Shown here: positions 5,886 through 39,913 of the stretch, in pieces | Layout: the number at the start of each line of letters is the position of its first letter | How positions within the stretch are numbered: the first letter of the stretch is position 1 | Source: a virus | Virus record (IMG/VR): IMGVR_UViG_3300010316_000019 | Coordinates: 1 to 39,913 of that record | DNA length: 39,913 nucleotides | Reading direction: 5' to 3' (one strand) | Position numbers and translations under genes: made by a program | Notes under the pieces: model-generated | Told to the model about the DNA's origin: nothing | The model's input: only the letters and a program-made list of their open reading frames with translations | Databases searched by the model: none

Positions 5886-7295
5886 ATGGCAAAAAATATT
5901 ACAAACGTTCAAATTTCTGATACTTTTCAGGTTTGGTTGAGCAAAACAAATGAATTAGTCGATCTAGTAAACAGTGACATTCTAACTGCATCTCAAAGTG
6001 GCGACACAACTATAGGTAATACCACTTTATCTGGAAACTTTGCTGCAAATAACATAACTGTTACTGGAACGACAGAAAGTAACATAATTCAGGCAAAAAC
6101 TATTGCGCTTCATAGCACAAGTTCACTTGGATACATTGATGTTACCGCTCAAACTAGATTTTCTTATGGTGAACAAAAAGCAGTCATCATAAAAAATTCC
6201 GTTGGACCTAGAATAGCAGTAGAAAACAATTCCGCTTCATGGGTATATGGATTACTTGACGACACACCAGCAACAAAATTTATCATAAGCACAGATGGTT
6301 TTGTCACACCTGCAATGAGTCTTACTTCTTCTGGTGATTTGTCTATTCTTAACAATATAAGCGCACAGAGTTTAACTGTCAATAGCATTTCAGCGCCAAC
6401 TATTGTAGGAAACGCATCAACCGCATCAAAATTACAAAATAGTTTTGATATTACTTCAATAGGTGGTGGTATAACATTATCTATCGCTGGGATTGATGGT
6501 AGTTCAAATGTCATTGGTTCTGCAACATTGAATATAAATGTTGTCGAAAATACAAATATAAGAAAAAGTGCAGCATTGTCTATAATAGGACGTTCTGCAA
6601 ACTCTTTGGGTAATGTGGCAGACATAACAGCATCAAGCGATCATCAAGTATTGAGAAGGTCAGGGGCCGCATTAGGTTTTGGTGCAATTGCTCTAAACCA
6701 ATCAAATGCGGTGACAGGAATACTTTCTGTAGCAAATGGGGGTACGGGCAAAGCAACAATAGCATCTGGGCAAATCATTTTTGGCAACGGTACAAGTGCA
6801 GTCGGCACAAGTTCTAATATGGTTTGGGATAATACAAACGGAAGAATGGGCATCAAGAAAGTTGCCCCCGCATATGAGATTGACGTTGTTGGCGACATAC
6901 AAGCATCTGGTCTTTTTAGAGGAACAGCAACTTCTGCACAATACGCAGACTTGGCAGAGAAATATCTTGCAGATGAAGATTATGAGGTTGGTACTGTAGT
7001 TTGTGTTGGCGGTGAAAAAGAAATTACAGCAACACAAACAGATGACTTGCCAATTGGCGTTATTTCAGGAAACCCTGCTTTCAGAATGAATGAAGGTCTA
7101 GAAGGTGGAATTTACGTTGCGCTAAAGGGTAGGGTTCCAGTGAAGGTTATTGGAAAAGTTGAAAAAGGCGATAAGTTAGTTCCATCATTTATGAAAGGAT
7201 ATGCAGAAGTCGCCAGTAGCAATTCACTTTATAACATATTCGCCGTAGCACTTAAAAATGACGAAAATGGAGTTGTTGAAGCAATTATTCTATAA
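5886..7295 (+). CDS. Tail fibre protein with GGTG motif and conserved C-terminal domain
   Basis: This 469-aa protein starts directly after the preceding stop. The N-terminal region is Asn/Thr/Ser-rich and beta-repetitive (for example TTIGNTTLSGNFAANNITVTG), typical of fibre shafts. Residues about 280-290 contain VANGGTG, a recurring element in phage tail fibres. A GIKKVAPAYEIDVVGDIQASG block follows, like the segment that precedes C-terminal chaperone or receptor domains in other fibres. From about residue 355 (ADLAEKYL and YEVGTVV) to the end there is a compact domain with GVISGNPAF and LKGRVPVKVIGKVEKGD. That arrangement recurs in fibres of marine T4-like phages and loosely resembles the domain of phage tail proteins called peptidase G2. 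I see no recognisable S74 catalytic pair. It probably assembles as a trimer on the virion and contacts the host surface. Confidence 0.8.
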   Translation: MAKNITNVQISDTFQVWLSKTNELVDLVNSDILTASQSGDTTIGNTTLSGNFAANNITVTGTTESNIIQAKTIALHSTSSLGYIDVTAQTRFSYGEQKAVIIKNSVGPRIAVENNSASWVYGLLDDTPATKFIISTDGFVTPAMSLTSSGDLSILNNISAQSLTVNSISAPTIVGNASTASKLQNSFDITSIGGGITLSIAGIDGSSNVIGSATLNINVVENTNIRKSAALSIIGRSANSLGNVADITASSDHQVLRRSGAALGFGAIALNQSNAVTGILSVANGGTGKATIASGQIIFGNGTSAVGTSSNMVWDNTNGRMGIKKVAPAYEIDVVGDIQASGLFRGTATSAQYADLAEKYLADEDYEVGTVVCVGGEKEITATQTDDLPIGVISGNPAFRMNEGLEGGIYVALKGRVPVKVIGKVEKGDKLVPSFMKGYAEVASSNSLYNIFAVALKNDENGVVEAIIL

Positions 7296-7304
7296 GGAAA
7301 CATT

Positions 7305-9392
7305 ATGAATATATCATTTATGAATTTGACCAATGAAAAAGAATTAATTACTTACGACTATTTTTGGTTATCTGTAAAAAGTTATATAGAAGACAATTAT
7401 GAGGGTAATTCTAGTTTCGTCTGGAATTACCCTCATAAATATCCTATAGCAAATAACGTAGAGGAATTTGCCCAAAACATAATAAATGAAAATCCAGATG
7501 TGTTTTTTGTTTCTCTATATGTTTGGAACTACCCACTTTCAAAAAAAGTAATGAAAATTGTGAAACGAAATCTGCCGAATTGCATAATAGTAATTGGTGG
7601 ACCGCATTTGCTATATAAAAAAGAATTAGACTTTTTTAAAAAACATCCTTACATAGATTACATATGTGAAAGCGAAGGATATGGAGAAGTCTTCGCAAAT
7701 GAATTTTTATATCAATTAGAGACAGATAAAAATTGGGATGAAGTACCATATATTATAAGACCAAAAGAAGATGGTATAGGGCATATAAGACCCAAAAAAC
7801 AATTCAATAAAAGAAACTTCGAATGGTCTAAAAAAATATTTGAAAGAAACTCTGATTATCTGATGTCTTTAAGGAAAGAGGCGGATGCTAAAACCGCGAA
7901 GATGTATTTTCATTATGAAAGTTCAAGGGGGTGCCCATTCGGTTGTACTTATTGTGAATGGGGTGGTGGGATAAATTCGAAAGTAAATTTCAAACCTACG
8001 GAAGATATTTTTGATGATCTTGATTTCATTTTTTCCAATATCAAACCAGAATTTTTCACTTTTACAGATGCCAATTTTGGTATTATAGAAAGAGACGTTG
8101 ATATTGCAAAAAAAATATGTGAATATAACGATACCATAGGTTATCCAGAAAAAATAAACATGTATGGTCCTACGAAAGTAAGAAAAGAGAACCTTTATAA
8201 AATTGAAGAAATGTTTGCCTCTAGAGATTTGACGACGATGTTGAAAATCCCTGTCCAAGATACAAATGATATTGTCAATAAAAATATTGACAGGACAGAT
8301 GATGATTGGAAAACACAAATGGTCGAATATGGTAAGATACGCGACAAACATAATGTTAAGATTATGCTTGAAATGATATTAGGATTGCCTGGTGCCACTT
8401 TGGATAGTTACTATGAAGGTCATGAGTTGACACAAGAGTATCGTGTGGATTCACTAAGATACGTCTGGCATTTCTTGCCAACTGCACCTGCCGCAAATAA
8501 AAATTATGTTGAAAAATTTAAAATAGAGACAATGAAATTGAATCAAGAATCTTTGTTTAATACCACATTTGAATTCAAAGGCATATTAAAAAAAGATGAA
8601 ATCATATCCTATAATGGAGAACACAATCTCAATAATGATACAAGATATGTCGAACCTTCTGAAATAGTTGTTTCCACTTATTCATATACCAGAGAAGAAT
8701 GGTGTGAAATGTGGTTAATGGAAAATTTTATAAACGTATTCGAATCAAAAGGATATCTGTCTAACATAACAAAATATTTGAGGCGCGAGAGAGGAATATC
8801 TATAGCAGACTTTTATAGAAAGTTGTGGAAGTCTTTCTTGAATAGTGATAATTTTTTGAATAAAAAACAAAATATTGTTAAGAATTCTATTATAAATGAG
8901 ACCATAAAAAGAGTAACATCCCCTAATAATGTTGAAGATTTTTATTTCTACGATCTTCCAGAAGAGTTTGGTTTGGAACTTAGAATGCAACTTCTGGTTA
9001 TGATAGTATTCATGATAAACATAAACAGAAAAGACTTTTATAAAGGCATTTTAAATTGGATGAAAGAAACATATGGTGATGACCCAATTCTTGAAGATAT
9101 GGTTTCATGGACAAATGAAATGATTCTATGGTTGGATTATGACCCAAAACAAGGAAAAGATATCATCTCTTTATATGATTGGGATTCTTGGTTAAAAGGG
9201 GAAGAACTTGAAAAAGTCAATACGAAATATTCTATAAATGATCAATATTATTTGGATGGAAGAAAAAAAATAGATTGGCATGAGAAAAATATGAAGGATA
9301 GAGTTTTGGATAGATTTTTTGTAATGTGTTCTGATTGTACATCATCTACACATCTTTTCAAAAAATGGGAGACTGTAAATGTCAAAAACTAA
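7305..9392 (+). CDS. B12-binding-domain radical SAM enzyme
   Basis: This 695-aa enzyme follows the fibre gene by 9 bases with an AAGGAAA ribosome site. Residues about 60-140 look like the Rossmann-type cobalamin-binding domain of class B radical SAM proteins: PDVFFVSLYVWN, then IIVIGGPHLL and YICESEGYGEVFANEF. The DxHxxG base-off motif is absent, which is common in this class. The radical SAM core has the cluster motif CPFGCTYC (Cys210, Cys214, Cys217), an FTFTDANFG strand, a PVQDTNDIVNKNI segment and LEMILGLPGATLDSY. About 250 further residues form an unassigned C-terminal domain. Enzymes of this class cleave S-adenosylmethionine with a 4Fe-4S cluster, and many methylate unreactive carbons or rearrange peptides. 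The substrate is unknown; the small proteins encoded just downstream are candidates. The stop overlaps the next gene by 14 bases, suggesting coupled translation. Confidence 0.88.
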   Translation: MNISFMNLTNEKELITYDYFWLSVKSYIEDNYEGNSSFVWNYPHKYPIANNVEEFAQNIINENPDVFFVSLYVWNYPLSKKVMKIVKRNLPNCIIVIGGPHLLYKKELDFFKKHPYIDYICESEGYGEVFANEFLYQLETDKNWDEVPYIIRPKEDGIGHIRPKKQFNKRNFEWSKKIFERNSDYLMSLRKEADAKTAKMYFHYESSRGCPFGCTYCEWGGGINSKVNFKPTEDIFDDLDFIFSNIKPEFFTFTDANFGIIERDVDIAKKICEYNDTIGYPEKINMYGPTKVRKENLYKIEEMFASRDLTTMLKIPVQDTNDIVNKNIDRTDDDWKTQMVEYGKIRDKHNVKIMLEMILGLPGATLDSYYEGHELTQEYRVDSLRYVWHFLPTAPAANKNYVEKFKIETMKLNQESLFNTTFEFKGILKKDEIISYNGEHNLNNDTRYVEPSEIVVSTYSYTREEWCEMWLMENFINVFESKGYLSNITKYLRRERGISIADFYRKLWKSFLNSDNFLNKKQNIVKNSIINETIKRVTSPNNVEDFYFYDLPEEFGLELRMQLLVMIVFMININRKDFYKGILNWMKETYGDDPILEDMVSWTNEMILWLDYDPKQGKDIISLYDWDSWLKGEELEKVNTKYSINDQYYLDGRKKIDWHEKNMKDRVLDRFFVMCSDCTSSTHLFKKWETVNVKN

Positions 9393-10434
9393 TTGGGTTA
9401 TCGTGTGGGAAAATAAAAAGTCTGAGCAATGGCAGGACGTGAACAAGAATATGAATTCTATAATAGATTTTGATAATTTTCTTGATACAAATGATGCAAC
9501 AAAAATGAAGCAAATGTTCATGAATAGAACAGAAAAAAACCATTTAGATTTCTCTGTTCCTGCTAATATAGAACTTATACCCGAAATGCTACAGTCGCTG
9601 CCAATAGCAAAAAAATTGGACGGTCAGTTGTTTGATCAGTTTCAAAATGAAAGTTATTCGTATGTTCTTCAAAAACACGTGGAAAGTAAATACAAACAGA
9701 ATGACGAATTAGTCATAAAAGAACATCTTTATCCAAATATAGCATTGAATGAAACGAACTGCAAAACATTAAACCTTGACCACATAAAAAAATTATTAGA
9801 AGATAATTCTTGGGTTGGTCTAGGAACACTTTTTGAAGTTGCTCAAAATGAATTCGACAAACTAAACATATTATCAAGTTCCGTTTTCTTAACCAGAGAT
9901 AAAGACACCCACAAAATCGTAAACTTGTCTAAAAAGAGACAACCAAATCCTAAAGCAAAATATTTGTCTTGTGTGACTTATGTGGTGTTCAAAAAACTGT
10001 CAGACAGCAATATTATTCTTGGTATATTGAACCCAAATCTAATAACATTAACACATTTTACCAACCTCGAAACAGAAAAACATAAGGTGACAACTCTTTC
10101 TAATATAGGTTCCATAGAAGAATATTTTCTGAAACCAAAAATAAAAAAAGGTGTGCTTGTTAACGAGAATTATTTGTTTCCCGAAAATGGTGAAATAGAA
10201 TTGGAATTGTTTGGTGATAGTCCTTATAAATACTTATATGAAAATACACCAAGGTTTCCATACACAATAAAAAGTAATGTCGAATACGAGATTGATCAAG
10301 ATATAGTGATAATAAAACCTAGAAAGAATGGTTATTTTGTAATTGAATTTGTCATTGACAGTATGATGAAATACGACTTTGATAAAAAGAATTCAAAAAC
10401 AAACAAATTAGAATACGTCATATTCGGAGAGTAA
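9379..10434 (+). CDS. Unrecognised 351-aa protein in the radical SAM cassette
   Basis: The ATG lies inside the end of the radical SAM gene (14-base overlap) behind a GGGAGA ribosome site, so the two are probably co-translated. The product starts MSKTNWVIVWENKKSEQWQD and has no signal peptide or membrane segment. The first 200 residues look mainly helical and charged. The last 150 alternate beta strands with turns (for example YEIDQDIVIIKPRKNGYFVI). Only a few cysteines are present and they form no metal-cluster motif. I do not recognise a family. Its place between a B12 radical SAM enzyme and two small HxH proteins suggests a partner of the enzyme, a scaffold presenting its substrate, or a virion protein that is modified. 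The sequence does not choose among these. Confidence 0.6.
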   Translation: MSKTNWVIVWENKKSEQWQDVNKNMNSIIDFDNFLDTNDATKMKQMFMNRTEKNHLDFSVPANIELIPEMLQSLPIAKKLDGQLFDQFQNESYSYVLQKHVESKYKQNDELVIKEHLYPNIALNETNCKTLNLDHIKKLLEDNSWVGLGTLFEVAQNEFDKLNILSSSVFLTRDKDTHKIVNLSKKRQPNPKAKYLSCVTYVVFKKLSDSNIILGILNPNLITLTHFTNLETEKHKVTTLSNIGSIEEYFLKPKIKKGVLVNENYLFPENGEIELELFGDSPYKYLYENTPRFPYTIKSNVEYEIDQDIVIIKPRKNGYFVIEFVIDSMMKYDFDKKNSKTNKLEYVIFGE

Positions 10435-10435
10435 G

Positions 10436-10639
10436 ATGGCAACTGAAACAAAAAACACAGACCCGTTTAATGGCGTGGCAACAGATGTTGATAGCAAAGC
10501 AACAGGCGAAGAAATTTCAGCAGATTCATTTCAGCAAATGGTTGATATTTTAGACTCACTTTTAGAACACCAGCATAATTTCACAGACACATACATATCA
10601 AATTGTGAATGTGAATGTGGTGGTGGCGGAACTATATAA
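10436..10639 (+). CDS. 67-aa small protein with HxH motif and CxCxC-Gly4 tail; candidate radical SAM substrate or fibre tip
   Basis: The ATG is one base past the preceding stop (TAAGATG). The N-terminal half is Thr/Ala/Asp-rich and probably flexible. Residues about 29-46 (ADSFQQMVDILDSLLEH) form a likely helix leading into HQHNFTDTY. The protein ends SNCECECGGGGTI, with three alternating cysteines and four glycines. The helix + HxH + aromatic-Thr-Asp pattern recurs in the next gene, so the two are related. In established cases (T4 gp37 tip, P2 gpV spike) HxH motifs in trimeric phage fibres bind iron. A conserved leader with a short Cys/Gly tail beside radical SAM enzymes also resembles the precursors of ribosomally made, modified peptides. 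Both readings are inferences: a metal-binding fibre tip, a modified peptide, or both. The location within late structural genes makes a virion role likely. Confidence 0.75.
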   Translation: MATETKNTDPFNGVATDVDSKATGEEISADSFQQMVDILDSLLEHQHNFTDTYISNCECECGGGGTI

Positions 10640-10651
10640 AAGGAAAAAACA

Positions 10652-11053
10652 ATGGCAACTACTACAGGAACCACAAGCGGTGTTACTGATATGGCACCTG
10701 CGGAATCAGTAAGATCAATATACACAAACCCATTAAGATCACGTATTCAAACAGGAAATACAATACGTGCTTCCGATTTGAACCTACTAAGAGACTTTAT
10801 ATCTACTGTCAGAAACCATAGACACACTTTAGTAGAATACACATCTATTAGTGAATTTGGAAATAATGGAAGCACAGTTCCAGTAAATAGAACTGCTTCT
10901 AAAGTTTACGATTCCTCAAATCAAATATTAGGAACACTGAATCTTCCTAATAGATCAAGGGGAGAAAAAATTGAATCAATTCACCACAACCTATTAAGAA
11001 TACCTTCAAGAAACCTAAGATCACATACACATCAATTTACGGATAGTTTTTAA
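10652..11053 (+). CDS. 133-aa small virion-like protein with two HxH units
   Basis: The start has a good ribosome site (AAAGGAAAA) 12 bases after the 67-aa gene. After a Thr/Gly-rich beginning (MATTTGTTSGVTDMAPAES) comes IRASDLNLLRDFISTVRNH leading into HRHTLVEYT. The C-terminus repeats the theme with IESIHHNLLRIPSRNLRSH leading into HTHQFTDSF. The protein is thus two copies of a short helix + HxH + (F/L)-(T/V)-(D/E) unit joined by a Gly/Asn/Ser linker, while the neighbouring 67-aa protein has one copy plus a Cys tail. I recall similar 'xASxxNxLR...HxHxYTD' units in virion proteins of marine T4-like phages. A trimeric, metal-bound fibre or needle element is plausible by analogy with HxH sites in T4 gp37. 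No enzymatic motif is visible. It is the second candidate substrate for the flanking radical SAM enzymes. Confidence 0.7.
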   Translation: MATTTGTTSGVTDMAPAESVRSIYTNPLRSRIQTGNTIRASDLNLLRDFISTVRNHRHTLVEYTSISEFGNNGSTVPVNRTASKVYDSSNQILGTLNLPNRSRGEKIESIHHNLLRIPSRNLRSHTHQFTDSF

Positions 11054-11058
11054 TACAT

Positions 11059-12357
11059 ATGGCATATACATTATTTGAATTACAAGATGGTCGTGAATTT
11101 TTCTATGATAGCAATGACAACACAATATATAATGGCAAAGGCGAAACATTAAATTTTTCCTTTGACAAATCTGACGAGTGGTATGAACAACAGTCAAAAG
11201 AATGGGGTACAGATCAGAAAACAGATAAACCTGTGTCATTAAGAATTTTATTGGGACATGCGTGTAATTATAATTGTTCGTATTGTATGCAAAAAGATAT
11301 TGGCGATCCTTCTGAAAGACCGCGAAGTTTGTGGACCGAAACTTTCATTGAAAAATTGAAAAAAAACTTGAGTTTTGAAAAACTATCAAGAGTAGAATTA
11401 TGGGGTGGAGAACCCTTTCTATATTGGAAAGATATGGTTGCTATCATGGAGTTTTTTGATCACCCTGATAGATATTTTTTCATATCTACTAATGGTTCTG
11501 CCTTTGTAGAAAAGCACTATGAATTTTTTAAAAAACTAAAATCACGGGTTATGATAAATGTAAGTCACGATGCTAAAAAGCAGGAATTGACAAGAGGTGT
11601 TGATGTTTTCAAAAATCCCAAAAAAGTAGATGTGATGAAAAGAATATTTGCACTTCCGAATGTGAGTTTTGCTTTTGGATGTGTGGTTAGTAGCGAAAAT
11701 CACGATCTTTTCGAAATCAATGAGTATTTTAAAGATTTTGTGGATAGAGAAGGTATTGTGGGCGCAAAATTGAATTTCATCCCTGCTAGAAATTATGACT
11801 TCCACGGAAAAGATGAAAACTCTGCGAAATATATCCTTAGAGGCGAAACCTTAAAGAAATTCAATGATCATATGTATGAATTTTTGAAAGTGGCAACAGA
11901 AGATATGGCACATGAGAAAACACTTCCATGTAGTTTGATGTATTCAGATTATGGAGTGGTCCAATATTCAAAATTTCTAAAAAATCAGGCACCAATTGTG
12001 TCTACATCAAAATGTGGTGCAGATTCAAATCGAGTTCTGAGCGTAGATTTGCAAGGAAATATTAGACTTTGCCCTCACTCTGACAATCATTTCAAAGCAG
12101 GAAGCATAGATGATTTGAAAGATATACGAATTCATGGTCTAGATTTGGAAAGAAAAAATAAGCATTGTATGAGTTGTCACGTCAAAAGATTGTGTAAAAG
12201 TTCTTGTCCTATTAAATTTCCAGATGAAGTTTTTTATAGCAATTGCGCACTAGAAAAAGTTTGGTGGGGTAATATTCAACTTGCATCAATGAGACTTTTG
12301 TTTGGTCAAGATGTTTCAATGATAAGCACTAATTTATCCAGCATGACTTCTTTATAA
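11059..12357 (+). CDS. Radical SAM/SPASM maturase
   Basis: This 432-aa enzyme starts 5 bases after the previous stop with no obvious ribosome site, suggesting coupled translation. The radical SAM cluster motif is CNYNCSYC (Cys69, Cys73, Cys76), followed by VELWGGEPFLYW, the GGEP element that helps bind S-adenosylmethionine, and later FISTNGS. The C-terminus has seven well-spaced cysteines (319, 338, 370, 373, 379, 383, 396) in the order C-x18-C ... CMSC-x5-C-x3-CP ... C. This matches SPASM domains, which hold auxiliary 4Fe-4S clusters. Members of this family include anaerobic sulfatase maturases and enzymes making thioether or carbon crosslinks in peptides, so a peptide or protein substrate is likely. 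The nearby Cys-rich 67-aa protein is the obvious candidate. All expected cysteines are present, so the enzyme looks functional. Its stop codon sits inside a late promoter. Confidence 0.92.
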   Translation: MAYTLFELQDGREFFYDSNDNTIYNGKGETLNFSFDKSDEWYEQQSKEWGTDQKTDKPVSLRILLGHACNYNCSYCMQKDIGDPSERPRSLWTETFIEKLKKNLSFEKLSRVELWGGEPFLYWKDMVAIMEFFDHPDRYFFISTNGSAFVEKHYEFFKKLKSRVMINVSHDAKKQELTRGVDVFKNPKKVDVMKRIFALPNVSFAFGCVVSSENHDLFEINEYFKDFVDREGIVGAKLNFIPARNYDFHGKDENSAKYILRGETLKKFNDHMYEFLKVATEDMAHEKTLPCSLMYSDYGVVQYSKFLKNQAPIVSTSKCGADSNRVLSVDLQGNIRLCPHSDNHFKAGSIDDLKDIRIHGLDLERKNKHCMSCHVKRLCKSSCPIKFPDEVFYSNCALEKVWWGNIQLASMRLLFGQDVSMISTNLSSMTSL

Positions 12358-22000: not shown

Positions 22001-22394
22001 TACACCAGATTGGATTGTTGATCCTAGTTCCAACATATCATTATTGAATGTGTCAGTCACCGAAGATTATAATCAAAATTCTGGAAAATTTGAAATGGGC
22101 GGCACTACATTCCAAGGAAACACACCATCTAACTTCATTGAAAAAAATAGACTTGATAGTGTAAAATTCGATGATAATATTGAATTGCCTCTGAGACCAG
22201 CAAATTTTAAATCATCTTTTTATGTGGGCGCAAACCAGACACAAAAGATAAGCATGGATTATTTGTTTGGGATTGATCGTTTCAAAGTAACGAAAGGCGC
22301 TTTGAATAATAAAACTGTATACTTCTCCGCAAAAGCGATAAATAGTGGTGATGTAGGTGAGGTTGAAATAACAGTCAACGGGAAGGAACAGTAA
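19041..22394 (+). CDS. Large virion structural protein, paralogue of the previous gene
   Basis: This 1117-aa protein lies 6 bases after its paralogue. Shared blocks are EVSNSLLGIPRANQQQSLLADV near residue 90, FRYQPGAISGFTFGAK near 314, SWYGAIGAKFYAYIPVG with CRWVLIHT near 454, and KYGASYYIDGADEG near 519. It lacks the CxRD units of its paralogue and has a different second half of about 550 residues, beta-rich with many Asn/Ser/Thr turns, probably the part that differs in binding. It begins with QILVDVRGNFLRDERGNFLY, a short internal duplication (RGNFLxD). There is no signal peptide or membrane segment. A virion adhesin or fibre role is inferred from the paralogue and the neighbours. The stop overlaps the next ATG by one base (TAATG). 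Confidence 0.7.
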   Translation: MSKQIKIGFDKTSPRESTFDQILVDVRGNFLRDERGNFLYTQVEDVSPSFFKENNSMSVSINNEATKEVGLGGYLSVEEQFPQSSEVSNSLLGIPRANQQQSLLADVSVYGLEENTWEFYGYPSPYQPVEWSTRKNRIYGKRYTPRYKEYADQQAISVESFPVPYTYPFGPQWDSQGLYNANLFTRYLRFVETGNILYDYFLSRGYLNFAKTNFLSRNDAQVDGNITLNNGQEADVIYNDDLNIAFSGIENWTMTWMDIRDSKLINPVDNKKITPSFVNSLLSNNSRVYGFDDTQPGYSSSNYYYYQLQSKEAFRYQPGAISGFTFGAKLNTDPSKTENIIEWGCANDTDQLMFQVSGSNLNIIRRSTVPLTNKSLGLNRLTPEDQHIVDVPNPFERDDSQILTDSGEYIEPKGSVYEAVIKSESFNGDPLDGSGDSGYTISFNEVTMYKIEYSWYGAIGAKFYAYIPVGNAECRWVLIHTLLIENSLDKPSLKNPFMHFRYVSYLKDTSSLREPIYLFKYGASYYIDGADEGTYSYNNYKARTKKTITASNSRPVLGFSSKQLIYNRDGIGTESQKNFYVDDISINTDVDSRIDILECEGCRNGYGHFYATSLLNGESSNIEQYTINELGQLYHANTSIYFTEEDHGKKIIGEGIFSSYLDINQTGIIQFADIARRIGATRINNPISSTTYTTNDLIRVGGEDISPIGYTFDGRITGFNDIISSSVPLTKNNIRVHFLCPIKKDALGQYNEFRIGVTPKVPLVEVVDFETNEEKLLFNSAVLNQEEEIYGEFSQYTSSKNAQGVEVGEDDRRYGNMFETDPRIPRPNGLNSGDCSTISFEIRDRENSGVEYRDELILDSGTITGNFIVFETNPSLSVLGGEIGVYDGNEFVSSGIFFTTELETFTESLLTKYYAEISDVIDLSSSIKNGQQTIAFKTIRSFGRFWDKTKVFNFNTYEFYLFISMMDNAQINNIVIEEFDDISTTSHTPDWIVDPSSNISLLNVSVTEDYNQNSGKFEMGGTTFQGNTPSNFIEKNRLDSVKFDDNIELPLRPANFKSSFYVGANQTQKISMDYLFGIDRFKVTKGALNNKTVYFSAKAINSGDVGEVEITVNGKEQ

Positions 22395-24754
22395 TGGCAG
22401 ACCCTGTAAGAGGTTTAAGAATTTCTCTTAAATTTGGCGACATTCTTGATGCAAACAAAACCTTGGAGAATTTGAATTTGCCCATAACTGATTTGGACAA
22501 AATCAGGGGAATTGGTGAAAGCGTTTCGCAAGAAGATTTGATAACGATAAGTGGAAATGATTTAGACATTGAAAAAAATGCAATTGGTATTTTTTCAGAA
22601 ACATTGTCTTATGAAAATGTACTTAGAAACCTTAATGATTCAAGAAGGCGTATTGGTCAAAACATTAATGTGAATGGTCGTTTTATATCACCAAGTTTCA
22701 AATTTAAAACAATTGATTTCGATAACGCAAACCAAATAAAGACGGTAGATTTTTCAACTTCAAGAGCATCTGCATGGTCTTCTTTTGGTGACGCATCATT
22801 GTCTATTTTCTATGGTGGTGATGTCAAAGTGACAAATGGTAATTCTGTTGAACTTTCATCTCTTGAATACACCGGAGACATAATAGAAAAAGAATTTGAT
22901 TCACAAGTTCCAACACACAAAATAAGAATTAATATTGATGGTTCTGAATATGACTTATATGCGATGAAAGGCATACCTCTTACATTCGCAGGTGCTATCA
23001 GTTCGGTGCCTGAAATGTCAATATCTTATAATGTTTTAGCGGGAGAAATAAAACCATCTTGGGTTATACAAAATAGCGACAATGATTTAAGATATGTTTA
23101 TAAAGATATTTCCACTGGTTCAGGATCAAGCAGAAAATCGACAATAAGTTTTTCTGATAGTAGAATATTAAATAGAGAAATAAAAGTCTATTACCCTGTT
23201 GATAATATAACTGAAATAAAATTGAATAATACAAGATTGGTTGATTTCCCGAAAGTTGTAATGAACAACTTGGTGACATTTGAGTGTATTAAAAACCAAT
23301 TCCTAGAAATTCCAGATTTTTCTGTATATGCACCATCACTCACCACATTAAATTTGAGTGATAGCGATATGAGATATTCAAACAATACAGATTTGAATAC
23401 ATTCACACAAGAAGTCGTTAAAAGACTCCCAAGCACATTGGTCAATTTATCATTAAACAATGTCTATTCGGATACTGCTGTTGTTGATTTTGGCGACCCT
23501 GTAGATGGTTTGCCTAATCTAAAATATTTCAGTGCAATTGCTTCTTCTTCTAATTCAAGAAGAATGTCAGGAACATCACCAGAGATAAATTCTGGATTGT
23601 TGACATATTATATACAAAGCAATAGATTCGATGATATTGCGAATACGGTTTTACAATCTTCTTCTTTGGAAAGAATTGATATATCAAATAATGATAGAGA
23701 ATTTTCTTCTACTATAGATTTTCCTAATGCATCTAATTTGAAATATTTTAAATCAGGATTGGGTAATAGACATAATATTGTTGACATGTCTGGAAAAAGT
23801 TTACTCGAAACATATTATATAGATAATATGTCATTTGTAAATGACAGTGTAGGAACAAATATAGTTAACAATTGTCCATCACTAACATATTTCAGAATGA
23901 ATAACACGAATGTATCTGGTGCATTGCCTAGTTTTGATACAAACACATCCTTGGAGCGCATAATATCTTGGTCTACGAGATGGGAAGACGCAGATGCAAC
24001 TTATAGTATTTCAAACACTACATTTGGATCAACTGGTGAATCGGGTTGCAGACCCACACTAATATATTTCAATTTGACAAGTGGATATTTAAGTGGTCCA
24101 ATTCATGAAGATGCATTGTTGAATATGACCAATCTTATAACATTTAGAATAAGTTCTGAGGGTAGTGGAATAACAGGAACATTACCTAAAACAAATTCAT
24201 GTCCAAAATTAGGATATTATTATCTAGACAGAAATAAACTTAGTGGTGCTATACCTTCACTAAATTCCAATCAAAGTCTTAGACTTGTGAATTTTAGTTA
24301 CAATCAGTTCGAAGATTTATTTCCAGCATCAAACCTCCCATTGTTGGGGCAGTTGATAGTTAATAACAACAATTTAATTGGTTTTAATGCTTTGAATCTG
24401 CCTTCTCTTTATACACTAAATGCCACAAATAATGCGGTAACAGCACTACCAGATTTTGAGAACATGCTCAACTTAAAATACATATATTTTGGAAAAAATA
24501 ATATTTCAAGTTATGATAAAGGTTCCATCACAAATTTGGCAAGAATGCAATTACTGGACTTATCAGACAACAACTTGACAACAGGTGATATTGATAACAT
24601 ATTGTTAGATTTGAATGATAATTATGATAACAATAGCAACAGAACAAATGTGAACATAAACTTATCTGGTAATGCACCAAGTTCTGGAACAGAAGAAACA
24701 TCAGCAATTGTCGCGAAGTTGGCAGCGGCAGGTTGGTCAATAGGATTAGCATAA
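22394..24754 (+). CDS. Leucine-rich-repeat virion-like protein
   Basis: This 786-aa protein has three parts. Residues about 1-60 contain LPITDLDKIRGIGESVSQED and LITISGNDLD, a block that matches DLDVIRGLGGTNVSPSTFTQIGG near the start of the minus-strand gene at 25748-27946. Residues about 100-265 look like a beta-rich spacer. From about residue 270 to the end there are many leucine-rich repeats, for example ITEIKLNNTRLVDFP, TLNLSDSDM, LERIDISNNDREFS, LGYYYLDRNKLSGAIP and LLDLSDNNLTTGDID. The C-terminal cap is VNINLSGNAPSSGTEE followed by AAAGWSIGLA. Such repeats form a curved solenoid that binds proteins or sugars. In a virion gene block the simplest reading is an adhesin whose N-terminal module attaches to the particle and whose repeat domain recognises the host surface. 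Confidence 0.78.
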   Translation: MADPVRGLRISLKFGDILDANKTLENLNLPITDLDKIRGIGESVSQEDLITISGNDLDIEKNAIGIFSETLSYENVLRNLNDSRRRIGQNINVNGRFISPSFKFKTIDFDNANQIKTVDFSTSRASAWSSFGDASLSIFYGGDVKVTNGNSVELSSLEYTGDIIEKEFDSQVPTHKIRINIDGSEYDLYAMKGIPLTFAGAISSVPEMSISYNVLAGEIKPSWVIQNSDNDLRYVYKDISTGSGSSRKSTISFSDSRILNREIKVYYPVDNITEIKLNNTRLVDFPKVVMNNLVTFECIKNQFLEIPDFSVYAPSLTTLNLSDSDMRYSNNTDLNTFTQEVVKRLPSTLVNLSLNNVYSDTAVVDFGDPVDGLPNLKYFSAIASSSNSRRMSGTSPEINSGLLTYYIQSNRFDDIANTVLQSSSLERIDISNNDREFSSTIDFPNASNLKYFKSGLGNRHNIVDMSGKSLLETYYIDNMSFVNDSVGTNIVNNCPSLTYFRMNNTNVSGALPSFDTNTSLERIISWSTRWEDADATYSISNTTFGSTGESGCRPTLIYFNLTSGYLSGPIHEDALLNMTNLITFRISSEGSGITGTLPKTNSCPKLGYYYLDRNKLSGAIPSLNSNQSLRLVNFSYNQFEDLFPASNLPLLGQLIVNNNNLIGFNALNLPSLYTLNATNNAVTALPDFENMLNLKYIYFGKNNISSYDKGSITNLARMQLLDLSDNNLTTGDIDNILLDLNDNYDNNSNRTNVNINLSGNAPSSGTEETSAIVAKLAAAGWSIGLA

Positions 24755-24755
24755 A

Positions 24756-25751
24756 ATGGTAGTAAGCACATTTCAAGGTTTTGACAAAGACCTAAATCTA
24801 AAAGAAACACAAGTAGACAGAGATTTCTTAAATAACTTAGGCGGTGCGCCTATCGCAGATGATATTGGATTATTTGTAAATAATAACAGAAATTTTTCTT
24901 CGATAAATGTACAAAGTTCTCAGATAAGCGGCGATACGATAACGTTTCCTTTAGATGTCACATTTGCATATACCGAAGGTACGACCATAACAATTGATGG
25001 CACTCCTTATTCAATTTTTGATGTATCAATAAACGAAAATGATGAAATAACAATTCGTTTGAAAAATGCTTCTGACGTAATAGTAGCAAATCCGCCCAGT
25101 GGAGACTATATTAGAAATGATGCAGTATCATACGATAATGTCACAAATCTTGTTAGATATAGAGATGTTGTAGTAGAAGATACCGCACTATCATTAGTTT
25201 TTTTTAGTGATGATGCAGAAGATATTACAGATCAAAATTCGCGAAACGTTTATTCTTCGTTGATAAATGTTTTCAATAAATATGCGACATATCCAGCAAC
25301 TTTGAAAGATTATCTATCATCTATTGAAATAAACATTGATTATGCAAATTCGAAAAGAGCAAATTCGATAGTAAAAAATAGAGACTTTTCTACAACATAC
25401 AAAACAGAAATAAATGGTGTTGCAGTTGTCAAAGACGAAGATGGACTAAATGACACTAGTGTCAGTTCTTCTAACCCAGGAATTTTTATTTTAAATACAG
25501 CAACTGGATCGTTTGCGAGAATTTTTTCAAGCAATGAAAATGTGTGGGAAAAGATTGGTTCTGATCTTGTTGCGGACACCAAAGAAATTTCAATTCAAAA
25601 TCTTGTTTTCGAAGATGAAATAAAATTGGAGACAAACGGCGTTTCAATAACAACAACAGAGAGTGGTGATGTGACAAGTGATTTCACACACTTCATGAAA
25701 GTATTGATAAACGGCGAAGAATACTATCTCTGCATGAAACCGGACGTTTAA
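24756..25751 (+). CDS. Structural-type protein of unknown function, 331 aa
   Basis: The ATG follows the leucine-rich-repeat gene stop by one base. The product starts MVVSTFQGFDKDLNLKETQV and has a VDRDFLNNLGGAPIADD stretch that may be a distant form of the DLDxIRGxG attachment block of its two neighbours; this similarity is weak. Residues about 45-130 are beta-rich (ITFPLDVTFAYTEGTTITID), and the rest mixes strands and helices without any motif I know. It closes the plus-strand block begun at 12404. Its TAA shares bases with the stop of the opposing gene (GTTTAAAC), and I see no terminator hairpin between them. A small fibre or an adaptor for a neighbouring fibre is possible. Confidence 0.6.
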   Translation: MVVSTFQGFDKDLNLKETQVDRDFLNNLGGAPIADDIGLFVNNNRNFSSINVQSSQISGDTITFPLDVTFAYTEGTTITIDGTPYSIFDVSINENDEITIRLKNASDVIVANPPSGDYIRNDAVSYDNVTNLVRYRDVVVEDTALSLVFFSDDAEDITDQNSRNVYSSLINVFNKYATYPATLKDYLSSIEINIDYANSKRANSIVKNRDFSTTYKTEINGVAVVKDEDGLNDTSVSSSNPGIFILNTATGSFARIFSSNENVWEKIGSDLVADTKEISIQNLVFEDEIKLETNGVSITTTESGDVTSDFTHFMKVLINGEEYYLCMKPDV

Positions 25752-27946
25752 ACACTGTCTGCTAGAATTTTGTAACCATTTGCAAGAACAATTGTGGTAT
25801 CATATGCAGGGGAAGAACCTGCACTTGAAACAGTGGTATTTGCTTCTGAAATAATATTTGCAAAAACTACGTTAAATTCAGTCGGAGATGTTGACTTTAT
25901 ATTATTCCCATCTGTACTTAATCCAGTATCAATTCCCAAAAATGGTGGTGATAAGTCAATAGGTAAAACACAACTTTCTTTGTTCGCAGAAGTTCCAGAT
26001 GGTGCAAAAATAATTGTAGAACCAGATTGTATTGTTTGGGTCACTGAATTTGAAATAGTAACATCATTACCAACTATAGATAGAACTGTTGTTGCAGATG
26101 GTATATATCCTTCAAATTGTACAACTTGACCACTAACTATACCATCAACAGAACCCAAAGTCAATGTGTCAGATGTAGCATTTGCGGTCAATACCTGCCC
26201 AAAAACACCATCACAGAAAATTTCTTTTGATCTATCAATAACACCAGCATTAGCATAAACAAAGACGTAAGCGTCCGTTATACCAAGATTTACAGAAGTT
26301 CTAAATTGTGTAGATGAAATTATTTCTGTTATTCTTACAAAATCTGTTGATAAGGTGGAAGAAGTTATACATATCATATCAACTCTTAAATTCGAAGTAT
26401 CACCCTCACTTATCGTGACAACATCACTTGCAGAAGTTGCAACATAATAATCAATTAAACCATTATGATTTATAACTTCCACAGACACACTAGTTTCTGT
26501 GGAAGGCATTGATTGGTTTACAATGCGCGTAGTAGAAATTGAAGTTGCACCTATTGTATCTTTCAATCTGAGATTTTTTGGTATTATGCCACCAATACCC
26601 ATTTGTGTTGGGTCAGTTGGAACTATGTAATTGCCCAATTCAGTTTGAGAAAGCGAAGAAGAATTTCCGATAATATATTTGTTATCTAATACATATTCTA
26701 TGGATAATCCGCTAACATTTGTTATTTGTGCTAAAGAACTTATAGGAGTGTATACTGATTGGAAATAGTTTTCATTTTGAAAATCTTTATAATCAGTTCC
26801 ACTTGATCCGGTTTCACCAAATTCTTCTTGTATTGGAGTTGTCGCATCTTCAATGAGTTTTCTTATCTCATAATCACCATACACATTAGTTGGTTCTTCT
26901 ATAGAAAATCTAGAAAATGGTAAAATAGTAGATGAAGAATATGCAACACTTAGATACTTAAATTCTGGATCATTCGATATTGTTGTGGGGAACCACCAGA
27001 AAAATCTGACCTTGAATGCTGGGGTTTCTGCCCTATCGGATATAATTGGTATTTCAAAACTTGCGTTAACATCATCAATCCCTGCAACAAATGTCAAAGT
27101 GAGATTTTCACCAGCATTAACAGAAATTGGATTTGAAAGCGTCAACACGTTACCAACAATGTTATCTATGAATATACTATCATCCCCATTTACAACATCA
27201 TTTTTTGCTACATATTTAACATCATCCTCTATGATAGAAACAGTTGTCGAATTTGATACAGTCGCTGCCACTTCAACAGTTCTTTCTTCTGCATATATAG
27301 AAGCAACTGTTAACCAATTCCCATCACCAAATCTATCATATTCTGCATGAAATAGACCTGTTGTAAGAAACGAAAAATTTTGATATGATGTTATAGGATT
27401 TGGAAGAAAATAACCTTCCCACATTATACCGCCATATGAATCTGGGAAGTTTGGTCTTATTCTATTGTTTATTTGAAACTCGCCAAGAACCCAAAAGTCG
27501 TCACTTGTTTCAACACCAGAAGTGTTTGCAGCATCATCGAAACTTGTAGTTTTCGTAAAATTTGATATTTTATCACTTGGTATGAAAAATGCTCTTGGAC
27601 CTAAACCGGAACCAAATTGCCCAACATCTCCCGTGACTTCACGATACTGTGTGAATCTATCTTTCAGACGAATTATTGGTGTTATATAATCTTCTTTAAT
27701 TTCGTCATTTTCAAAATATGTGTAAGTTGGTGCAGTCCCACCTATTTGTGTAAATGTTGATGGAGACACATTTGTCCCACCCAAACCCCTAATAACATCC
27801 AAGTCTTGTGATATGAATGTTTTTCCATCTACGACTACAGGAAGATTATCTAATAAGTTATTCAAACTTATTTCGGGGTTCTTAATATCTGATAGATTAT
27901 TTTCACGTCTTACACCATAGCGACGATATTTTGAAGTGCTTGCCAT
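25748..27946 (-). CDS. 732-aa virion structural protein on the opposite strand
   Basis: This is the only long minus-strand gene. Its ATG (27944-27946) has an AGGAATTG ribosome site and lies 34 bases from a minus-strand TATAAATA. The start MASTSKYRRYGVRRENNLSD and the block DLDVIRGLGGTNVSPSTF resemble structural proteins I recall from marine T4-like phages; the DLDxIRG block is shared with the leucine-rich-repeat protein. A GIMWEGYFLPNP segment lies near residues 170-180 and an FFWWFPTTI segment follows near 310. The last 200 residues have fibre-like repeats such as TLGSVDGIVSGQVVQFEGYI. Only the C-terminal end touches its convergent neighbour (4-base overlap of stops). Function beyond virion structure is unknown. 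Confidence 0.72.
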   Translation of the reverse strand: MASTSKYRRYGVRRENNLSDIKNPEISLNNLLDNLPVVVDGKTFISQDLDVIRGLGGTNVSPSTFTQIGGTAPTYTYFENDEIKEDYITPIIRLKDRFTQYREVTGDVGQFGSGLGPRAFFIPSDKISNFTKTTSFDDAANTSGVETSDDFWVLGEFQINNRIRPNFPDSYGGIMWEGYFLPNPITSYQNFSFLTTGLFHAEYDRFGDGNWLTVASIYAEERTVEVAATVSNSTTVSIIEDDVKYVAKNDVVNGDDSIFIDNIVGNVLTLSNPISVNAGENLTLTFVAGIDDVNASFEIPIISDRAETPAFKVRFFWWFPTTISNDPEFKYLSVAYSSSTILPFSRFSIEEPTNVYGDYEIRKLIEDATTPIQEEFGETGSSGTDYKDFQNENYFQSVYTPISSLAQITNVSGLSIEYVLDNKYIIGNSSSLSQTELGNYIVPTDPTQMGIGGIIPKNLRLKDTIGATSISTTRIVNQSMPSTETSVSVEVINHNGLIDYYVATSASDVVTISEGDTSNLRVDMICITSSTLSTDFVRITEIISSTQFRTSVNLGITDAYVFVYANAGVIDRSKEIFCDGVFGQVLTANATSDTLTLGSVDGIVSGQVVQFEGYIPSATTVLSIVGNDVTISNSVTQTIQSGSTIIFAPSGTSANKESCVLPIDLSPPFLGIDTGLSTDGNNIKSTSPTEFNVVFANIISEANTTVSSAGSSPAYDTTIVLANGYKILADSV

Positions 27947-39290: not shown

Positions 39291-39913
39291 ATGAAAATCG
39301 TTTTTATCGACAAACTTGGTCTGTCTTATGATGGCGACACTCTTAACAAAAATGGTCTAGGTGGTTCTGAATCCGCAGTCATTTTAATGACAAAAGAACT
39401 AAAAAAATTGGGGTTCGATGTTACAGTTTTCAATAACTGTAGTGACGAACCACATTCAACTGAGGGCGTATATGATGGTGTAAGATACATAGACAACACA
39501 AATGCAAAAGAACATAACGAAGTTTATGATGTTGCCATTGTATCAAGATCAGTTCAACCATTTCTAAATGACGAATATCCATTCTTGAAAAATGCTAAGA
39601 AAAGAATTCTTTGGTTGCACGACACTTTTATTGAAGGCGAACATGCATTAGAAGAACTTGTTCTTTCAAGAAAAATACATCATGTTTTCACTCTTTCAGA
39701 TTGGCATACATCATATATTCTCAATTCAAATCATGGCAAAAGAAGAAACTTCGAAGTCCTCAAAAAGCATTTCTTCCAAACTAGAAATGGTGCAGTTAAG
39801 CATATAAGCGAAGTGGATTTATTGAAGAAGGATAAAAACCATTTCGTTTACAATTCAAGTGCCACAAAAGGATTGTTACCTCTTGTAAATGATATATGGC
39901 CTGAAATCAAAAA
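39291..39913 (+). CDS. GT4-type glycosyltransferase, N-terminal part (runs off the window)
   Basis: The ATG follows a GGAG ribosome site, and the frame stays open for 207 codons to the end of the window, so the gene is cut. The product starts MKIVFIDKLGLSYDGD and has NGLGGSESAVILMTKELKKL near residues 21-40, the Gly-rich loop with GGSE that marks the N-terminal domain of GT-B, GT4-like enzymes. Later elements are DVAIVSRS, KRILWLHDTF near residue 105, and VFTLSDWHTSYIL. FVYNSSATKGLLPLV near the end fits the step into the nucleotide-sugar domain, where 'SS..KGL' is frequent. It should move a sugar from a nucleotide donor. The acceptor is unknown: modification of virion proteins, phage DNA or the host surface are all possible. 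The late promoter favours a virion protein. Confidence 0.8.
   Translation, partial: MKIVFIDKLGLSYDGDTLNKNGLGGSESAVILMTKELKKLGFDVTVFNNCSDEPHSTEGVYDGVRYIDNTNAKEHNEVYDVAIVSRSVQPFLNDEYPFLKNAKKRILWLHDTFIEGEHALEELVLSRKIHHVFTLSDWHTSYILNSNHGKRRNFEVLKKHFFQTRNGAVKHISEVDLLKKDKNHFVYNSSATKGLLPLVNDIWPEIK

What the first reader, a model, noticed from the sequence alone, without database searches (positions are those of the whole stretch)
7305..12357. Two radical SAM enzymes flank a Cys-rich small protein: candidate phage peptide- or fibre-modifying system
Seen: five tightly packed genes (14-base overlap, then 1, 12 and 5-base gaps) encode a B12-type radical SAM enzyme (Cys210/214/217), an unknown 351-aa protein, a 67-aa protein ending CECECGGGG, a 133-aa HxH protein and a radical SAM/SPASM enzyme with all seven SPASM cysteines. 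Everything around them is virion structure. Known: SPASM enzymes usually act on peptides or proteins, and a small precursor with a Cys/Gly tail beside them is the usual layout of modified-peptide gene clusters. Inference: the phage modifies its own small virion peptide late in infection, for example by thioether or carbon crosslinks or methylation, to make a stable tip or a bioactive cap. Against a classic secreted peptide: no exporter or leader peptidase gene is seen.
Basis: partly seen in the sequence, partly recalled or inferred. Interest (0 to 1): 0.85.

Follow-up and report, generated by a model that had tools for sequence, protein, structure and literature searches.

The report
Phage cassette modifying cysteine-tailed virion proteins
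Many uncultured bacterial viruses, and a few cultured ones, carry radical-chemistry enzymes next to tail proteins whose ends are strings of alternating cysteines, which suggests that these viruses chemically remodel the tips of their own particles; the five genes found here are a shortened version of that system.

Summary

The window is a reduced form of a conserved phage cassette. Of 51 IMG/VR loci with a window-type SPASM gene and at least 7.5 kb upstream, 43 carry a 63-93-aa HxH peptide ending in alternating cysteines, and 42 of these have four radical SAM genes.

A wider rule emerged. In viruses, proteins ending in Cys-Asn-type runs have a SPASM gene nearby on the same strand in 63 of 65 informative loci; the same DNA pattern in cellular genomes almost never does. 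The tails sit on 19 unrelated protein clusters, so the enzyme tracks the tail. 

Best reading: SPASM enzymes modify alternating-cysteine tails of virion proteins. The association is strong and makes the substrate assignment likely; the chemistry and presence in the virion are not shown. I found no paper describing it.

The parts
7305..9392 (+). B12-dependent radical SAM enzyme, 695 aa, CX3CX2C at C210/C214/C217; probable sp3-carbon methyltransferase
   Evidence: Pfam B12-binding 7e-11; NCBIfam KedN5 3e-33, below cut-off; nearest solved structures TokK 3e-49 and CysS 7e-39 for the four-member alignment
9379..10434 (+). p351, conserved cassette protein without a known family; AF2 model has a mixed N-terminal part and beta-sandwich-like parts; possibly structural or carrier
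   Evidence: Homologues in 41 of 51 cassette loci; model pLDDT 82, pTM 0.83; best viral structure match is an RP12 protein, E 6e-16; no good PDB match
10436..10639 (+). 67-aa HxH peptide ('pep') with alternating-Cys tail SNCECECGGGGTI; proposed substrate
   Evidence: Aligned with homologues of 63-93 aa: HxHxFxDxY...CxCxC; always with a SPASM gene where the contig is long enough
10604..10621 (+). Codons of the N-C-E-C-E-C run, the proposed site of modification (three cysteines, at residues 57, 59, 61)
   Evidence: Sequence; C57, C59, C61 invariant in 8 homologues
10652..11053 (+). 133-aa protein with two HxH motifs (H56/H58, H125/H127); probable metal-binding virion adaptor
   Evidence: All four His, G70 and D131 invariant in 29 homologues; start of longer proteins in two jumbo-phage loci; phrog_31780 3e-6
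11059..12357 (+). SPASM1 (SP1), radical SAM/SPASM enzyme with seven SPASM cysteines; proposed modifier of the Cys run
   Evidence: Pfam Radical_SAM 1e-13, phrog_1802 7e-44, PapB 9e-15 below cut-off, cysteine spacing, tree position
5886..7295 (+). Fibre-like protein directly upstream, with the C-terminal region shared by the upstream fibre gene of the related cassettes
   Evidence: 56-58% identity over 128 residues to the upstream fibre in L007, L009, L010, L011; phrog_19602 tail fiber 9e-5

Best explanation
The five genes are a reduced copy of a phage-encoded protein-modification cassette. Shown: the 67-aa protein belongs to a family of small phage proteins that carry an HxH motif and end in alternating cysteines; its gene sits with a SPASM radical SAM gene in a conserved order; and alternating-Cys tails on unrelated phage proteins, many of them tail fibres, are paired with SPASM genes almost without exception. 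Inferred: during late infection the SPASM enzyme (SP1) uses 5'-deoxyadenosyl radical chemistry to modify the CxCxC run, probably forming bonds from Cys sulfur to carbon of neighbouring residues. The B12 enzyme probably adds methyl groups to the same protein or to a partner. Also inferred: the modified small protein is mounted on the virion through its HxH region (metal-bound, together with the 133-aa double-HxH protein) and gives a fibre or adaptor a chemically altered C-terminal tip. In full cassettes three more radical SAM enzymes (SP2, SP3, rS4) go with a C-terminal xRG-(two residues) motif; the window has lost both. My estimates: SP1 acts on the Cys tail 0.8; the product is in the virion 0.6; the product is a Cys-to-carbon thioether 0.4.
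For: 63 of 65 viral loci with an in-frame Cys-Asn-type tail and at least 3 kb downstream have a SPASM-type gene, all linked genes on the same strand, median 1.2 kb away. 63 pairs form 30 SPASM clusters at 70% identity, and the tailed proteins without tails form 19 clusters. In cellular genomes the same pattern has a radical SAM hit in 2 of 119 stretches. Starting from the enzyme, 63 of 80 and 43 of 72 loci have an ORF with at least three alternating cysteines, against 0.145 and 0.042 per locus after shuffling. Conserved cassette in 42-43 of 51 loci. Tail type and enzyme set change together. Six of ten tailed proteins tested match tail-fibre or virion families. Runs are C-terminal in 74 of 79 linked cases, and the other five are directly followed by S74-like or Hint-like domains. 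JWF, an isolated phage, shows the same pairing.
Against: No biochemical or mass-spectrometric evidence. The peptide has not been shown in virions; RP31 virion data exist but the protein list was not readable here. The SPASM enzymes stay far below the score cut-off of every characterised maturase family. The nearest solved relatives of the B12 enzyme act on small molecules. The window's own tail has only three cysteines.
Confidence: 0.6

Rival explanations
1. Metal site rather than covalent change: the HxH and CxC motifs are metal ligands, and the radical SAM enzymes build or insert a metal cofactor on the virion tip (as HydE/HydG do for hydrogenase), leaving the peptide chain itself unchanged.
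For: HxH motifs are invariant, HxH iron sites are known in the T4 fibre tip (own knowledge), CxC is a common metal-ligand spacing, and several different radical SAM enzymes work together in full cassettes.
Against: Most viral cases have one SPASM enzyme and no other assembly gene recognised nearby; the SPASM enzymes score best against peptide maturases; the run varies in length from 3 to 10 cysteines, unlike a defined cluster site.
Confidence: 0.15
2. Diffusible modified peptide: the 67-aa protein is a precursor of a released bioactive peptide (bacteriocin-like or host-takeover factor), as in bacterial RiPP clusters.
For: Small Cys/Gly-ended precursor beside SPASM and B12 enzymes; a 58-aa CNC peptide next to a radical SAM gene also occurs in an Erysipelotrichaceae genome; the optional DUF3050 gene is related to MgoB, required for mangotoxin production (PMC3298696).
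Against: No exporter or leader peptidase recognised among the window or cassette proteins searched; the same tails sit on long tail fibres; the peptide lies among virion genes and shares the HxH motif with the 133-aa protein.
Confidence: 0.12
3. The enzymes act on sugars, lipids or other host molecules (surface remodelling), and only share the variable tail-fibre region with the Cys-tailed genes.
For: The equivalent region of SAR11 phages carries many lipopolysaccharide genes (PMC7029224); B12 radical SAM relatives include lipid and small-molecule methylases; the window ends in a weak glycosyltransferase match.
Against: A pairing of 63 of 65 with a tail motif on 19 unrelated protein clusters, and covariation of tail type with enzyme set, are not expected from shared location alone. 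This remains more plausible for the B12 enzyme, found in only 13 of 51 cassettes, than for SP1.
Confidence: 0.1

Closest known systems
Ralstonia phage RP12/RP31 radical SAM genes (RP12 ORF76, 77, 79, 80; PMC5468394)
   Same: Same gene order as the full cassette: pep, p351, SP2, SP3, rS4, SP1, DUF3050/MgoB-like, seen in L401, whose contig has the published RP12 length of 279,845 bp.
   Different: Annotated one by one as unrelated enzymes; neither the peptide nor a joint function was recognised. The window lacks SP2, SP3, rS4 and DUF3050 and has a B12 enzyme instead.
Achromobacter phage JWF fibre PJWF_00028 and 'anaerobic sulfatase-maturating enzyme' PJWF_00030
   Same: SPASM enzyme related to the window's (E 6e-24) near a fibre-like protein with NCNCDCNCNCSC.
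   Different: One SPASM enzyme only; the run is on a long protein followed by a Hint domain; no HxH peptide.
Pelagimyophage host recognition cluster with radical SAM cassettes (PMC7029224)
   Same: Radical SAM gene cassettes in the variable tail-fibre region of T4-like SAR11 phages.
   Different: Mentioned in passing, without substrate, peptide or function.
PapB-type ranthipeptide and other SPASM peptide maturases
   Same: Best named matches of SP1 and SP2; small Cys-rich gene next to the enzyme.
   Different: Scores far below cut-offs (54.7 against 340 for SP1), no recognised leader-binding domain, no exporter; proposed substrate is a virion protein with strictly alternating cysteines.
TokK / CysS / KedN5 cobalamin-dependent radical SAM C-methylases
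   Same: B12-binding plus radical SAM domains; nearest solved structures and best NCBIfam match.
   Different: Those enzymes serve antibiotic small-molecule pathways; here the neighbour is a small phage protein, and the KedN5 score is 115 against a cut-off of 700.

Membership tests
Radical SAM RiPP cluster (ranthipeptide/sactipeptide type) | Small Cys-rich precursor gene conserved next to a radical SAM/SPASM gene | tested here: met
   43 of 51 window-type loci
Radical SAM RiPP cluster (ranthipeptide/sactipeptide type) | Maturase above the cut-off of a known maturase family | tested here: not met
   PapB 54.7 bits against 340 for the window; SP2 125 against 340
Radical SAM RiPP cluster (ranthipeptide/sactipeptide type) | PqqD-like recognition domain, separate or fused | tested here: not met
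   No Pfam PqqD match in the five window proteins or in L011 cassette proteins; divergent domains could be missed
Radical SAM RiPP cluster (ranthipeptide/sactipeptide type) | Leader peptidase or exporter gene | tested here: not met
   None recognised among the window or L011 cassette proteins searched
Radical SAM RiPP cluster (ranthipeptide/sactipeptide type) | Modified residues in the core peptide | not testable with these tools
   Needs mass spectrometry
Cobalamin-dependent radical SAM methyltransferase (KedN5/TokK/CysS type) | B12-binding domain followed by a CX3CX2C radical SAM domain | tested here: met
Cobalamin-dependent radical SAM methyltransferase (KedN5/TokK/CysS type) | KedN5 subfamily score cut-off | tested here: not met
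   114.9 bits against 700
SPASM-domain radical SAM enzyme | CX3CX2C plus seven-cysteine SPASM pattern | tested here: met
   Cysteines 69, 73, 76 and 319, 338, 370, 373, 379, 383, 396
HxH-CxC phage radical SAM cassette (defined here) | HxH133, p351, pep and SP1 together | tested here: met
   All four present in the window
HxH-CxC phage radical SAM cassette (defined here) | SP2, SP3, rS4 and a C-terminal xRG motif (full form) | tested here: not met
   Window lacks all three genes and the motif: a reduced form, shared only with L388
HxH-CxC phage radical SAM cassette (defined here) | Peptide present in the virion | not testable with these tools
   RP31 virion data are deposited (PXD006355, PMC5468394) but could not be read here

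The most novel reading that the evidence does not exclude
Tailed phages of many kinds carry a dedicated post-translational chemistry for their own particles: SPASM radical SAM enzymes, alone or in cassettes of four or five with a B12 methylase and a DUF3050 oxidase, convert strictly alternating-Cys C-terminal tails of fibre and adaptor proteins into a non-natural tip (crosslinked, epimerised at alternate residues, methylated or metal-loaded) needed for adsorption, membrane contact or particle stability.
Probability: 0.45. Interest if true: 0.95.

Novelty: new variant of a known kind. Interest (0 to 1): 0.86.

Why it matters
Radical SAM genes in phages have been noted as curiosities or as metabolic helpers (11-12 per genome in Campylobacter phages CP220/CPt10, PMC2853527). 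A specific substrate, the alternating-Cys tail of virion proteins, would turn many of those annotations into one testable function: chemically modified amino acids on the virus particle. It would extend peptide-maturase chemistry from secreted natural products to virus structure, and it supplies hundreds of enzyme-substrate pairs (at least 577 viral loci for one SPASM type) in which the likely modification site can be read from the sequence. Models of such phage tips made without the modification may be incomplete.

Tried and rejected
Naming the enzymes from family libraries: only sub-threshold matches to specific families. Isolate phages by tblastn with the 67-, 133- and 351-aa proteins: no match; with SP2 and the RP12 SP3: none; RP12 and RSF1 records are not held. 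First scans with single sequences: one locus for the SPASM enzyme and none for the B12 enzyme, because single-sequence patterns were too strict. A recoded stop codon in L001 (in-frame TAA in two SPASM genes): rejected, since TAA ends most neighbouring genes and the genes are intact in near relatives. Chance occurrence of Cys runs: rejected by the wrong-frame control and by shuffles. A general attraction of radical SAM genes to CNC-coding DNA: rejected by the cellular-genome control, where hits are mostly simple repeats or Cys/Gly-rich proteins. p351 as an enzyme: no catalytic fold found. An existing description in the literature: none found in nine searches, eight of them on phage radical SAM systems; preprints and most subscription papers were not searchable.
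Full report
Observation. The window is a whole 39.9-kb virus record, and its surroundings are virion genes: an 1808-aa protein of PHROG families 358/877, fibre-like proteins and a beta-helix protein. Protein 1 is a B12-binding radical SAM enzyme and protein 5 a radical SAM/SPASM enzyme with CX3CX2C and all seven SPASM cysteines. Proteins 2-4 match no Pfam or NCBIfam family convincingly.

Close relatives. A scan with the SPASM protein gave one related contig (L001). It carries the same genes in the same order, plus more radical SAM genes between them and a DUF3050-like gene after them (DUF3050 confirmed for the L011 homologue). A scan with the 67-aa peptide gave five contigs, four of which were found again with the B12 enzyme. 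L007, L010 and L011 show the full arrangement: fibre, B12 enzyme, p191, p351, peptide, SPASM2, rSAM3, rSAM4, HxH133, SPASM1, DUF3050, two small genes, fibre. The window is shorter: it lacks SPASM2, rSAM3, rSAM4, DUF3050 and p191. Its SPASM1 is 57-59% identical to theirs and falls beside them in the tree with 99/100 support, so loss in the window lineage is the simplest history (inference).

The peptide. The 67-aa protein aligns with homologues of 63-93 aa: an HxHxFxDxY segment, then CxCxC, often extended to five cysteines, then one variable residue and RG plus two residues in nearly all. Residues between the cysteines are N, Q, A, E or D with one exception. The 133-aa protein has two HxH motifs, invariant in 29 homologues, and in two jumbo-phage homologues it forms the start of a longer protein.

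The general rule. The nearest SPASM enzyme in an isolated phage (Achromobacter phage JWF, E 6e-24) lies two genes after a fibre-like protein that reads NCNCDCNCNCSC directly before a Hint domain (Hint confirmed by Pfam). This suggested a test. Where the run is in frame within 45 residues of the end of an open frame of at least 60 codons, and at least 3 kb downstream is held, 63 of 65 loci contain a SPASM-type gene. Without the 3-kb condition it is 74 of 93, and all 74 are on the same strand, at a median of 1.2 kb. The two exceptions are frames of 63 and 64 codons that may not be genes. Hits that failed the tail criterion had a SPASM-type gene in 5 of 27, and those five are genuine runs followed by S74-like or Hint-like domains. 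The 63 pairs fall into 30 SPASM clusters at 70% identity and 12 at 50%; the tailed proteins, with tails removed, form 19 clusters. The enzyme therefore follows the tail rather than one protein family. Of ten tailed proteins tested, six match PHROG tail-fibre or structural families.

Controls. The same pattern in bacterial and archaeal genomes gave mostly simple repeats and Cys/Gly-rich proteins. Only two of 119 stretches had any radical SAM hit: one weak (L140), and one beside a 58-aa peptide ending CNCDCNCDCSSDD in an Erysipelotrichaceae genome (L235). Starting instead from the enzyme, 63 of 80 loci of the JWF type hold an ORF with three or more alternating cysteines, against 0.145 per locus after residue shuffling. 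For the window type the figures are 43 of 72 and 0.042, part of the shortfall being contigs cut before the peptide.

The full cassette. Among window-type loci with at least 7.5 kb upstream, 43 of 51 carry the peptide; 42 carry SP2, SP3 and rS4; 41 p351; 43 HxH133; 26 DUF3050; 13 a B12 enzyme. All enzyme types keep CX3CX2C in the members checked, and the genes are tightly packed. Seven of the eight loci without the peptide are distant or differently placed SP1 homologues; the eighth, L407, is cut short. Some distant ones sit near small Gly-rich proteins with CGACAC, CACACDC or CQCQCQC followed by a Gly run, which recalls the window's CECECGGGG but was not tested further.

Covariation. Every peptide in a locus with SP2 ends in xRG plus two residues. 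The two peptides in loci without SP2, the window (GGGGTI) and L388 (LGNGCNLV), lack it (L009 ends at its contig edge and is uninformative). I infer that SP1 serves the Cys run and that SP2/SP3/rS4 serve, or recognise, the RG end. Two exceptions are few, so this is a lead.

A cultured example. AF2 models of p351 (pLDDT 82) and HxH133 (pLDDT 72) find, as best viral structures, two proteins of Ralstonia phage RP12 with neighbouring accession numbers. Locus L401 lies on a contig of 279,845 bp, exactly the published RP12 length, and its order pep, p351, SP2, SP3, rS4, SP1, DUF3050 fits RP12 ORF76 (radical SAM), ORF77 (Fe-S oxidoreductase), ORF79 (MoaA-like) and ORF80 (MgoB-like) of PMC5468394. That paper reports 32 RP31 virion proteins (data PXD006355); the supplementary list could not be read here, so virion presence stays open. 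JWF and RP12/RP31 make the hypothesis testable in culture.

Mechanism. Most likely the SPASM enzyme modifies the Cys run of the small protein, and the product is mounted on the virion through HxH metal sites (inference). The runs are C-terminal, or are followed directly by S74-like or Hint-like domains, which in other proteins cleave themselves off (established knowledge); this fits a mature, exposed end. The bond is unknown: Cys-to-carbon thioethers are a common product of related SPASM maturases (established knowledge), while epimerisation of alternate residues, methylation by the B12 enzyme (nearest solved relatives TokK and CysS) and metal loading are not excluded.

Novelty. Radical SAM cassettes in pelagimyophage host recognition clusters (PMC7029224), the many radical SAM genes of Campylobacter phages (PMC2853527), and radical SAM genes in Ralstonia and Burkholderia jumbo phages (PMC5468394, PMC8066314, PMC11898562) are on record without a substrate. 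No paper describing the Cys-tail pairing was found. I rate it a new variant of a known kind (peptide-modifying radical SAM systems), with a substantial chance of being a kind of its own.

Noticed in passing
L001:6368-6370 and L001:10988-10990: In-frame TAA codons interrupt SPASM2 and SPASM1 in this contig only; both genes are intact in close relatives. Could be real nonsense variants in the population or assembly errors.
   Followed up: partly
L235:221-1465: A 58-aa peptide ending NNCNCDCNCDCSSDD directly before a radical SAM gene in an Erysipelotrichaceae genome: a possible bacterial (or prophage) counterpart of the phage pairs.
   Followed up: partly
L014:4170-9149 (Campylobacter phage CP220): CPT_0180 contains six CxCxC units (CTCDC type) in a 21-bp repeat array and lies about 2 kb before radical SAM gene CPT_0184, perhaps another form of the pairing, with internal repeats.
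   Followed up: no
L360, L363, L371, L378, L391: Distant window-type SPASM genes without the HxH peptide sit near small Gly-rich proteins with CGACAC, CACACDC or CQCQCQC followed by a Gly run.
   Followed up: partly
window 22394-24754: The C-terminal part matches leucine-rich repeats (PF13855, 2e-8), unusual for a gene in a phage structural region.
   Followed up: no
window 25748-27946: The only large gene on the minus strand (732 aa); no Pfam or PHROG match.
   Followed up: no
L382:8009-9283: A jumbo-phage cassette with an additional SPASM2-like gene between rS4 and SP1.
   Followed up: no
window 39291-39911: Open-ended ORF with a weak glycosyltransferase family 4 match (1.4e-3, below cut-off).
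   Followed up: no
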